Positions 46,935 to 49,201 of a stretch of DNA of 64,000 nt are shown piece after piece (within the stretch, counting starts at the first letter, position 1; the number at the start of each line of letters is the position of its first letter). Origin of the DNA: Solirubrobacterales bacterium (GTDB lineage: Bacteria > Actinomycetota > Thermoleophilia > Solirubrobacterales > Solirubrobacteraceae); NCBI GenBank assembly GCA_027306855.1, contig DAHUYZ010000002.1, positions 1 to 64,000 on the forward strand. The letters run 5' to 3'. Below the pieces are notes generated by a model, which was not told the origin of the DNA, searched no databases, and saw nothing but the letters and a program-made list of their open reading frames with translations. A program made the position numbers and the translations under genes.

Positions 46935-47135
46935 ATGGCCGTCCCCAAGAAAAAGCAGTCTCACAGCCGTACGGCTCTCAGGCGGGCCCAGCACAAGATC
47001 GAGGCGCCCGCTGTGAACGAATGTCCGCGCTGCCACAGTCCGCGCAGGCCCCACCGGGTGTGTCCTGTGTGCGGAACCTACGCCGGACGCGAGATCGTGA
47101 CGGCCGCCGCGCACGATCACGACCACGATCACTAG
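46935..47135 (+). CDS. rpmF: 50S ribosomal protein L32 (zinc-binding form, His/Asp tail)
   Basis: Small structural protein of the 50S subunit. The N-terminal MAVPKKKQSHSRTALRRAQHKIEAP is diagnostic. A zinc knuckle follows as CPRCHSPRRPHRVCPVCGTY. The 66-residue protein ends in HDHDHDH, an alternating His/Asp tail not expected in L32 that looks like a metal-binding appendage. The yceD-rpmF-plsX-acpP-rnc order is widely conserved. A TAGCCT box lies 9 nt upstream. Confidence 0.95.
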   Translation: MAVPKKKQSHSRTALRRAQHKIEAPAVNECPRCHSPRRPHRVCPVCGTYAGREIVTAAAHDHDHDH

Positions 47136-47187: not shown

Positions 47188-48264
47188 GTGAGTGAAGGAC
47201 CACCTCGACCCGGGGATCCGAGAGCTGACATCATCGTCGCCGTCGACGCCAACGGCGCCGACATGGGACCGCAGGAGGTGGCGGCTGGGGCTGCCCTCGC
47301 CGCCGGTAGGGGAGCGCGCGTGCTGCTGTTCGGCCCAGCCGATCTGATCGGCGCCGTGCCCACCGGCGTCGAGCTCGTCGACGCTCCGGTCTCGATCGCC
47401 AAGAGCCCCGATCCCGCCAGGGCGGTGCGCGCAACGCCCGACGCCTCGATAGTCCAGGCTACGAAGGCCGTGGCGGATGGGCGCGCGCACGCGCTCGTAG
47501 GCGCCGGCGGCACAGGGGCCGCGCTTGCGGCGGGGCTGTTCAACGTCAGGCGCGCCCGTGGCGTTTACAGGCCGGCGCTCGCATTGCCGCTCCCCGTGCC
47601 TGGGATGCCGGTCACGCTGCTCGACGTCGGTGCGAACGCGCAGGCGCGCAGCGAGCATCTCGTCCAATTCGCCTTCATGGGGGCGGCGTTCGCGCAGGCG
47701 GTGCTTGGTGTGGAGCGGCCTCGCGTCGGGCTGCTGTCCAACGGCGAGGAGAGCGAGCGTGGAGGAGAGCTGGTGCTCGCGGCCGGCGCGGCGCTCGCCC
47801 GGCACGGCGAGGAGGGAAGGCTGCGTTTCCTCGGCAATGTCGAGGGCGGCGATGTCGTGAGCGGCGCCGCTGACGTGATCGTGACGGACGGGCTTACGGG
47901 CAACATCGCGCTGAAGCTGATGGAGGGCGTCTCGCAGACGATGCTTGGAGCGGTTCGCGACGCTGCGATGTCGTCGTGGCGCGGGAAGCTGGGCGGAGCG
48001 CTGCTGCGTCCGTCGCTGCGCGCCTTTCGCGAGGAGATCGACCCCGAAGCCCAGGGCGGCGCCTACCTGCTGGGCCTGCGCCGGCTCGCCGTCGTGCCGC
48101 ACGGCCGCTTCACGAGGGAAGGGTTCGCGCACGCGATCCTGCGAGCGCAGCGCGGTGCGCGCGAAGATCTCGTAGGGCTGACTCATGCGGCGCTCGAGTC
48201 GGCGCAGGCGCTGCGGACCCCGCACGCGTCCGGCGATCCGGCTAGCCTGCCGGAGAGCAGATGA
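47188..48264 (+). CDS. plsX: Phosphate acyltransferase PlsX
   Basis: Converts acyl-ACP to acyl-phosphate, the donor used by PlsY for the first acylation of glycerol 3-phosphate. The N-terminal motif reads VAVDANGADMGPQEV, where the family norm is close to VDAMGGDxxP, so the Met-Gly-Gly-Asp stretch is altered. GAGGTGAALAAGLF, LDVGANAQARSEHLVQFAFMGA, LLSNGEE and VTDGLTGNIALKLMEG are typical. 358 residues from a GTG at 47188; about 14 residues precede the first strand. The stop overlaps the acpP start (ATGA), linking it to the acyl carrier protein it uses. Confidence 0.92.
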   Translation: MSEGPPRPGDPRADIIVAVDANGADMGPQEVAAGAALAAGRGARVLLFGPADLIGAVPTGVELVDAPVSIAKSPDPARAVRATPDASIVQATKAVADGRAHALVGAGGTGAALAAGLFNVRRARGVYRPALALPLPVPGMPVTLLDVGANAQARSEHLVQFAFMGAAFAQAVLGVERPRVGLLSNGEESERGGELVLAAGAALARHGEEGRLRFLGNVEGGDVVSGAADVIVTDGLTGNIALKLMEGVSQTMLGAVRDAAMSSWRGKLGGALLRPSLRAFREEIDPEAQGGAYLLGLRRLAVVPHGRFTREGFAHAILRAQRGAREDLVGLTHAALESAQALRTPHASGDPASLPESR

Positions 48265-48509
48265 CACGCGAGCAAGTATTCGCACTGATCCAGGCGCACC
48301 TCGCGGACGAGCTGGAATTCGAGCCGGATGAGATCCACGAGGACACCAGATTCAAGGACGATCTGGAGGCCGACTCGCTCGACCTGTACACGCTCGTTCA
48401 GGAGCTCGAAGACAGCTATGGGGTGCATGTGTCCGACGAGCAGGCGGCGCAGATCATGACGGTCGGGCAGGCTGTGGACTTCGTGCTTGCCCAAGCTCCC
48501 GCCGAATGA
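48261..48509 (+). CDS. acpP: Acyl carrier protein
   Basis: Carries acyl chains on a 4'-phosphopantetheine arm for fatty acid synthesis. The attachment Ser is in LEADSLDLYTLVQELED (DSL motif), about residue 39. 82 residues with the usual four-helix pattern, acidic helix II and a C-terminal QIMTVGQAVDFVLAQ. It overlaps plsX by 4 nt upstream and rnc by 4 nt downstream, so the three are probably translated together. CoA for the holo form is made through CoaD, encoded nearby. Confidence 0.95.
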   Translation: MTREQVFALIQAHLADELEFEPDEIHEDTRFKDDLEADSLDLYTLVQELEDSYGVHVSDEQAAQIMTVGQAVDFVLAQAPAE

Positions 48510-49201
48510 GCGGCGGCGGCGCGGACTCCGTTGGCCCTCTAAGGTCGCTGCTGGAAAGCCTGCCCGAAGACCTTTCGAGACAGGTCTTCACGCACGCGTC
48601 GTGGACGCCGCGCCGCAGCGACTCATATGCACGCCTCGCGTTCCTGGGCGACAGCGTGCTGGCACTCGCCGTGACGGCGTACCTCTATCCACGCTTGGAG
48701 GCCGAGCGATTCGGCGCGGGCCGGTTGACGAAGATCCGGGCGCAGGCCGTCTCCGGGCGGTCGTGCCGTGCGGTGGCGGAGCGTCTGGAGCTGGGCGATC
48801 GCCTGCGGGCAGCCGCGCCCGGCGGCGATCGAGACAAGGTGTCCTCGCTCGTGCAGACCGAGCGGGTGCTTGCCTCTGTGATTGAGGCGGTGATCGGGGC
48901 CTGTTATCTCAGCGCCGGCTATGAGCGCACGGCCGAGGCGGTCGTGCGGGCGTTCGCGCCCGAGATAGAGCAGGCGCTGGACCATCCGCTCGACTTCAAG
49001 TCGGCGTTACAGGAGGCGCTCGCTAGACGGGGAGAGACCGTCTCTTATGAGGTGACGGACATCGAGGGACCGCCCCACGAGCGCACGTTCGAGGTGACCG
49101 CGACGATCGCTGGGCGGACTCTCGGCAGGGGTCGCGCCAGCAGCAAGAAGCGTGCGGAGCAGCAAGCGGCCAGCGAGGCGCTCGAGCGCGTGGGCAAGTG
49201 A
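48506..49201 (+). CDS. rnc: Ribonuclease III family protein, catalytic acidic residues altered
   Basis: By synteny and sequence this is RNase III, the double-stranded-RNA endonuclease that processes rRNA and regulates mRNAs. An RNase III domain (LSRQVFTHASW, RLAFLGDSVLALAVTAYLY, GRLTKIRAQAVSGRSC) is followed by a dsRNA-binding domain (DFKSALQEALARRG, GRASSKKRAEQQAASEAL). The signature normally reads NERLEFLGD and ILADTVEALIG. Here they read YARLAFLGD and VLASVIEAVIG, so the residues equivalent to E. coli Glu38, Glu41 and Asp114 are Ala, Ala and Ser, while Asp45 and Glu117 remain. Cleavage activity is therefore doubtful; it may bind dsRNA only, or use a variant site. 231 residues. Confidence 0.9.
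   Translation: MSGGGADSVGPLRSLLESLPEDLSRQVFTHASWTPRRSDSYARLAFLGDSVLALAVTAYLYPRLEAERFGAGRLTKIRAQAVSGRSCRAVAERLELGDRLRAAAPGGDRDKVSSLVQTERVLASVIEAVIGACYLSAGYERTAEAVVRAFAPEIEQALDHPLDFKSALQEALARRGETVSYEVTDIEGPPHERTFEVTATIAGRTLGRGRASSKKRAEQQAASEALERVGK

What the first reader, a model, noticed from the sequence alone, without database searches (positions are those of the whole stretch)
48506..49201. RNase III lacking conserved metal-binding acidic residues
The signature normally reads NERLEFLGD...ADTVEALIG; here it is YARLAFLGD...ASVIEAVIG. In E. coli numbering Glu38, Glu41 and Asp114 are replaced by Ala, Ala and Ser, while Asp45 and Glu117 are kept. Glu41 and Asp114 ligate Mg2+ in characterised enzymes, so cleavage may be lost or the site rearranged. 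The dsRNA-binding domain is intact. If lineage-wide, the group may process rRNA in another way.
Basis: partly seen in the sequence, partly recalled or inferred. Interest (0 to 1): 0.68.

Follow-up and report, generated by a model that had tools for sequence, protein, structure and literature searches.

The report
RNase III with pared-down active site
A whole order of soil bacteria (Solirubrobacterales) makes an RNA-cutting enzyme, RNase III, that lacks two of the four metal-holding residues of the textbook enzyme; it has converged on the two-residue site of a smaller active cousin (Mini-III), so it probably still cuts and offers a natural test of which parts of this active site are needed.

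Summary
Window 48506-49201 (+) is rnc, in the rpmF-plsX-acpP-rnc-smc-ftsY cluster, with Ala, Ala and Ser at E. coli positions 38, 41 and 114; Asp45 and Glu117 are kept. This is not an oddity of one assembly. Ala41 is in 111/111 Solirubrobacterales sequences and 0/108 other Actinomycetota; Glu65 is lost in the same 111 and none of the 108. Both changes map to one branch (SH-aLRT 99). Asp45 and Glu117 are invariant in 219/219. Position 114 is Ser (106) or Glu (5), with Arg/Lys at position 110 in all 106 Ser cases. Complete genomes have no second RNase III. Loss of cleavage is the less likely reading: the domain is under strong purifying selection (median dN/dS 0.05), the predicted fold is intact, and long, covarying 16S and 23S processing stems persist. 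B. subtilis Mini-III, an active dsRNase, has the same reduced site (Leu38, Ala41, Asp45, Pro65, Thr114, Glu117), and its Glu117 equivalent is essential. Best reading: an active class 1 RNase III that converged on a Mini-III-like two-carboxylate centre. Activity and metal use are untested; Arg110 standing in for a metal is conjecture.

The parts
48506..49201 (+). rnc, RNase III (231 aa) with reduced active site
   Evidence: AlphaFold2 mean pLDDT 93.7, best PDB matches E. coli, A. aeolicus and T. maritima RNase III
48566..48955 (+). RNase III catalytic domain (residues 21-150)
   Evidence: Pfam PF14622 match to residues 21-150
48998..49186 (+). dsRNA-binding domain (residues 165-227)
   Evidence: Pfam PF00035, 65.4 bits
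48629..48631 (+). codon of Ala42 = E. coli Glu38 (variable within the order)
48638..48640 (+). codon of Ala45 = E. coli Glu41 (metal ligand lost; Ala in 111/111 of the order, Glu in 108/108 others)
48650..48652 (+). codon of Asp49 = E. coli Asp45 (kept, 219/219)
48863..48865 (+). codon of Arg120 = E. coli position 110 (new conserved Arg, always Arg/Lys when 114 is Ser)
48875..48877 (+). codon of Ser124 = E. coli Asp114 (metal ligand lost)
48884..48886 (+). codon of Glu127 = E. coli Glu117 (kept, 219/219)
46935..47135 (+). rpmF (L32), context; 3' end approximate
   Evidence: read from the sequence, no HMM run
47188..48264 (+). plsX, context
   Evidence: Pfam FA_synthesis 253 bits
48261..48509 (+). 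acpP, overlaps the rnc start
   Evidence: Pfam PP-binding 44.5 bits
49236..52598 (+). smc, context (start codon not verified)
   Evidence: Pfam SMC_N 218 bits
52656..53681 (+). ftsY, context
   Evidence: Pfam SRP54 242 bits; ftsY rather than ffh inferred from the position after smc

Best explanation
This is the only RNase III of the order Solirubrobacterales, and it is most likely still a dsRNA-cutting enzyme. In the ancestor of the order, Glu41 and Glu65 became non-acidic, and Asp114, already unstable in related families, became Ser (or Glu in a few). That leaves an Asp45 + Glu117 centre like the one Mini-III uses. Shown: the sequence change, its single origin, the invariance of Asp45 and Glu117, purifying selection, no paralogue, an intact predicted fold, maintained rRNA processing stems, and the likeness to Mini-III at these positions. 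Inferred: that it cleaves those stems, and that metal is bound mainly by Asp45 and Glu117 together with RNA phosphates, with weaker or partly replaced second-site binding (Arg110 is a candidate for part of that charge).
For: Ala41 in 111/111 of the order and 0/108 others; Glu65 lost in the same set; Asp45 and Glu117 in 219/219. One change each at 41 and 65 on a tree built without the trait columns; branch SH-aLRT 99. One PF00636 gene in every complete genome tested; the only extra hit was a 13.7-bit match below cut-off. Median dN/dS of the domain among close pairs is 0.051 in the order and 0.098 in other Actinomycetota. AlphaFold2 pLDDT 93.7 and RNase III structures as the best PDB matches. 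16S processing stem found in 20 of 22 operons and 23S stem in 21 of 22; 7 of 22 and 8 of 19 pairs change on both sides, 0 of 500 shuffles as high. Three solved Mini-III sequences read Leu38, Ala41, Asp45, Pro65, Thr114, Glu117; BsMini-III cleaves dsRNA with 1 mM Mg (PMC4357697) and E106Q (= Glu117) inactivates it completely (PMC5141509). In E. coli, single E41A and D114A keep weak activity in excess Mg, whereas Glu117 changes to K, A or Q abolish cleavage and D45A is inactive in vivo (PMC8708148 Table 1).
Against: No biochemical data were found for any member. Mini-III is a distant relative without a dsRBD and depends on ribosomal protein L3 in vivo, so activity need not carry over. In E. coli, E41A and D114A each weaken activity and dsRNA binding, and no test of the double loss was found. 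The processing stems could be maintained for folding or for another nuclease.
Confidence: 0.7

Rival explanations
1. Pseudoenzyme: it binds dsRNA through the dsRBD and the catalytic-domain dimer but does not cut, acting like rnc70-type mutants or plant RNC1 as an RNA chaperone or regulator; another nuclease matures the rRNA.
For: Two of four metal ligands and Glu65 are gone; E. coli E41A and D114A are each weak and bind dsRNA poorly, and catalytically dead RNase III that still binds RNA is known (PMC8708148).
Against: Asp45 and Glu117 never vary, which a dead enzyme need not keep; domain dN/dS is as low as or lower than in canonical relatives; stems covary; Mini-III is active with the same ligand set.
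Confidence: 0.15
2. Normal two-metal enzyme with relocated ligands: another side chain (Glu109, Glu143, Ser114 itself, or Glu114 in some members) replaces Glu41 and Asp114.
For: Glu109 is Glu in 86% of the order (others 20% D+E) and position 143 is Glu in 85% (others 7% D+E); five members have Glu114.
Against: Glu109 is not invariant, and by helix periodicity it should not face the same side as 114 and 117; no new acidic column reaches 100% in the order.
Confidence: 0.12
3. Assembly or annotation artefact, or contamination, in one metagenome bin.
For: The window comes from a 259-contig assembly.
Against: The same residues occur in 111 sequences from many assemblies, including complete genomes of isolates, in the tree position expected for the order.
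Confidence: 0.01

Closest known systems
Class 1 bacterial RNase III (rnc; E. coli, A. aeolicus, T. maritima, M. tuberculosis)
   Same: Domain order RIIID + dsRBD, predicted fold, signature motif RLxFLGD, Asp45, Glu117, 16S and 23S processing stems
   Different: Glu41, Glu65 and Asp114 replaced (Glu38 often); new conserved Arg110, Gln74, Pro99
Mini-III / MrnC (B. subtilis 4oun and 6tnn, 1u61, 2gsl)
   Same: Same acidic-site make-up: no Glu38 (as in about half of the order), Ala41, Asp45, no Glu65, hydroxyl residue at 114 (Thr), Glu117; a basic residue just before position 114
   Different: Mini-III lacks the dsRBD, has an extra helix alpha5b (PMC4357697), and is distant in sequence; the Solirubrobacterales protein nests among class 1 RNases III of its own class, so the likeness looks convergent
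Class 1 RNase III of other Thermoleophilia and other Actinomycetota with A, N or G at 114
   Same: Asp114 lost repeatedly (nine changes on the tree)
   Different: They keep Glu41 and Glu65 in all 108 sequences sampled outside the order
Plant ClRTL1 (mini-RNase III-like; PMC4632822)
   Same: Reported to lack the E40 and D107 equivalents and to keep D44 and E110 (A. aeolicus numbering), as B. subtilis Mini-III does
   Different: Plant mini-RNase III-like protein; its activity was not examined here

Membership tests
Class 1 bacterial RNase III | RNase III domain followed by one dsRBD | tested here: met
   Pfam hits PF14622 and PF00035; predicted fold matches E. coli RNase III and others
Class 1 bacterial RNase III | Four metal-binding carboxylates Glu41, Asp45, Asp114, Glu117 | tested here: not met
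   Only Asp45 and Glu117 present
Class 1 bacterial RNase III | NCBIfam TIGR02191 score above curated cut-off | tested here: not met
   161.2 bits against 166.25; nearly all order members also fall below it, though G171 of family f3 passes with 179.2 bits
Class 1 bacterial RNase III | Orthologous position in the tree and genome | tested here: met
   Nests with other Thermoleophilia RNase III; plsX-acpP-rnc-smc-ftsY locus in the window; single copy
Class 1 bacterial RNase III | Mg-dependent dsRNA cleavage with 2-nt 3' overhangs | not testable with these tools
   Needs biochemistry
Mini-III | Reduced site: Ala41, Asp45, Thr/Ser114, Glu117 | tested here: met
   Alignment with three solved Mini-III sequences
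Mini-III | Single-domain protein without dsRBD | tested here: not met
   dsRBD present at residues 165-227
Mini-III | Phylogenetic descent with Mini-III | tested here: inconclusive
   The order branches inside class 1 sequences, but Mini-III sequences were not in that tree

The most novel reading that the evidence does not exclude
In Solirubrobacterales, Arg110 occupies the place of one catalytic metal: loss of Glu41 and Asp114 removed a metal site, and the positive charge of Arg/Lys110, present in all 106 Ser114 sequences but in only one of five Glu114 sequences, took over, giving a one-metal class 1 RNase III.
Probability: 0.2. Interest if true: 0.75.

Novelty: new variant of a known kind. 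Interest (0 to 1): 0.55.

Why it matters
Glu41, Asp45, Asp114 and Glu117 are treated as the metal cage of RNase III, Dicer and Drosha. A whole bacterial order that lost half of it, with no second RNase III and with its rRNA substrates kept, is a natural experiment on which ligands and which metal ion are needed. It suggests that the reduced Mini-III site can arise independently in a full-length, dsRBD-bearing RNase III, and it warns that residue-based rules could wrongly call such enzymes dead.

Tried and rejected
A DNA pattern scan of 397 Actinomycetota genomes for the R-L-A-x-x-G-D codons was written too loosely (229 genomes hit, mostly chance) and was discarded. Duplex energies over whole leader and spacer regions gave no clear signal and timed out; local complementarity alignment did. 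The first dN/dS run included saturated pairs and was replaced by close pairs only. A pairwise test of Ser114 with Arg110 had only 3-4 independent contrasts, none against but not significant. A first motif table mis-read minus-strand loci and was redone. Literature searches found no report on RNase III in Solirubrobacter or on this change in Thermoleophilia in the open library. Artefact and paralogue-rescue explanations were rejected.

Full report
The feature. Window 48506-49201 on the + strand is a complete rnc gene of 231 codons. Its ATG overlaps the stop of acpP, and it lies in the cluster yceD, rpmF, plsX, acpP, rnc, smc, ftsY. Pfam finds an RNase III domain and a dsRNA-binding domain. The NCBIfam RNase III model scores just under its curated cut-off, 161.2 against 166.25 bits. 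Alignment with E. coli gives Ala38, Ala41, Asp45, Ala65, Ser114, Glu117.

It belongs to a lineage. Named relatives place the genome in Solirubrobacterales, class Thermoleophilia. Of 79 named loci with a readable gene in that run, all have Ala41, Asp45, Ser114 and Glu117; they include isolates and complete genomes. In 111 sequences of the order and 108 from other Actinomycetota, position 41 is Ala in 111 and Glu in 108; Glu65 is absent from the 111 and present in the 108; Asp45 and Glu117 are present in all 219. The 111 contain some near-copies of the same locus fetched twice, so they are not all independent species. Position 114 is Ser 106 and Glu 5 in the order; elsewhere it is Asp 63, Ala 29, Asn 13, Gly 2, Glu 1. 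Position 38 varies inside the order, so Ala38 is a local trait. On a tree built without columns 38, 41, 65, 110 and 114, positions 41 and 65 need one change each, on a branch with SH-aLRT 99, while loss of Asp114 needs nine changes. Asp114 was therefore unstable in the class, and Glu41 and Glu65 went with the origin of the order. The tree is a quick one, with 49 of 124 inner branches open.

No substitute gene. The window's genome has one RNase III-domain gene, and thirteen other genomes, mostly complete, have one each above cut-off; the single extra hit, 13.7 bits, is below it. Mini-III would be expected to match PF00636, and none was seen.

Not a decaying protein. Among close pairs in the order, the median dN/dS of the catalytic domain is 0.051 (70 pairs), against 0.098 (21 pairs) in other Actinomycetota. 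AlphaFold2 gives mean pLDDT 93.7, and the best PDB matches are E. coli, A. aeolicus and T. maritima RNase III. TM-scores near 0.55 reflect the mobile dsRBD (my reading); the C. jejuni catalytic domain alone matches at TM 0.82. Metals and the dimer were not modelled.

The substrates are still there. Around the rRNA genes of order members, long complementary arms flank 16S (20 of 22 operons) and 23S (21 of 22), above shuffled controls. In the cores, 7 of 22 pairs (16S) and 8 of 19 pairs (23S) change on both sides, 0 of 500 shuffles as high. Family f7 genomes, outside the order and with Glu41, have the same kind of stems. The classic RNase III substrate is thus maintained in bacteria with the reduced enzyme. 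This supports, but does not prove, cleavage by it. The window's own genome gave no 23S match, so its own stems could not be read.

What the reduced site resembles. Three solved Mini-III sequences (4oun/6tnn, 1u61, 2gsl) read Leu38, Ala41, Asp45, Pro65, Thr114, Glu117. BsMini-III cleaves dsRNA in 1 mM Mg (PMC4357697), and E106Q, the Glu117 equivalent, inactivates it completely (PMC5141509). A plant paper notes that B. subtilis Mini-III lacks the E40 and D107 ligands (PMC4632822). So an RNase III domain with only the Asp45 and Glu117 carboxylates can be an active nuclease. In E. coli, E41A and D114A keep weak activity in excess Mg, Glu117 changes to K, A or Q abolish cleavage and D45A is inactive in vivo (PMC8708148 Table 1). 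The order kept exactly that pair.

A possible compensation. Arg110 is in 95% of the order and about 2% of the others. With Ser114 it is Arg or Lys in 106 of 106; with Glu114 in 1 of 5. One helical turn separates 110 and 114, so the charge may sit near the vacated site. Independent contrasts are too few for significance, and no coordinates were available to measure distance. This is a conjecture.

Verdict. The most likely reading is an active class 1 RNase III that converged on a Mini-III-like two-carboxylate centre once, at the base of Solirubrobacterales. It is a new variant of a known kind. Whether the trait occurs outside Actinomycetota was not tested, and the open library searched held no earlier report.

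Noticed in passing
L113-L162, L220-L247 (other Thermoleophilia and Actinomycetota): Asp114 of RNase III is replaced by Ala, Asn, Gly or Glu in many other families of the class and phylum, with Glu41 kept; family f22 instead has Gly38 and a shortened loop.
   Followed up: partly
L173, L174 (genomes G143 and G168, genus g24, 1.7 Mb): Very divergent RNase III (about 109 bits, long branch 1.84) in small-genome members of the same family, with Lys110 and Val43; Asp45 and Glu117 still kept.
   Followed up: no
L215 (G162), L218 (G120), L264 (G033): 23S rRNA matches span about 3.7, 5.3 and 4.1 kb instead of 3.0 kb, suggesting introns or intervening sequences.
   Followed up: no
L248-L265, L213-L216 (rRNA operon flanks): The 5' arms of the 16S and 23S processing stems share the motif CYTTGAAAAC, and most stems carry the same G-G mismatch next to it.
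   Followed up: partly
window 48506-49201 and order members: NCBIfam TIGR02191 scores fall under the curated cut-off for nearly all of the order, so automatic naming by that model could miss these genes.
   Followed up: no
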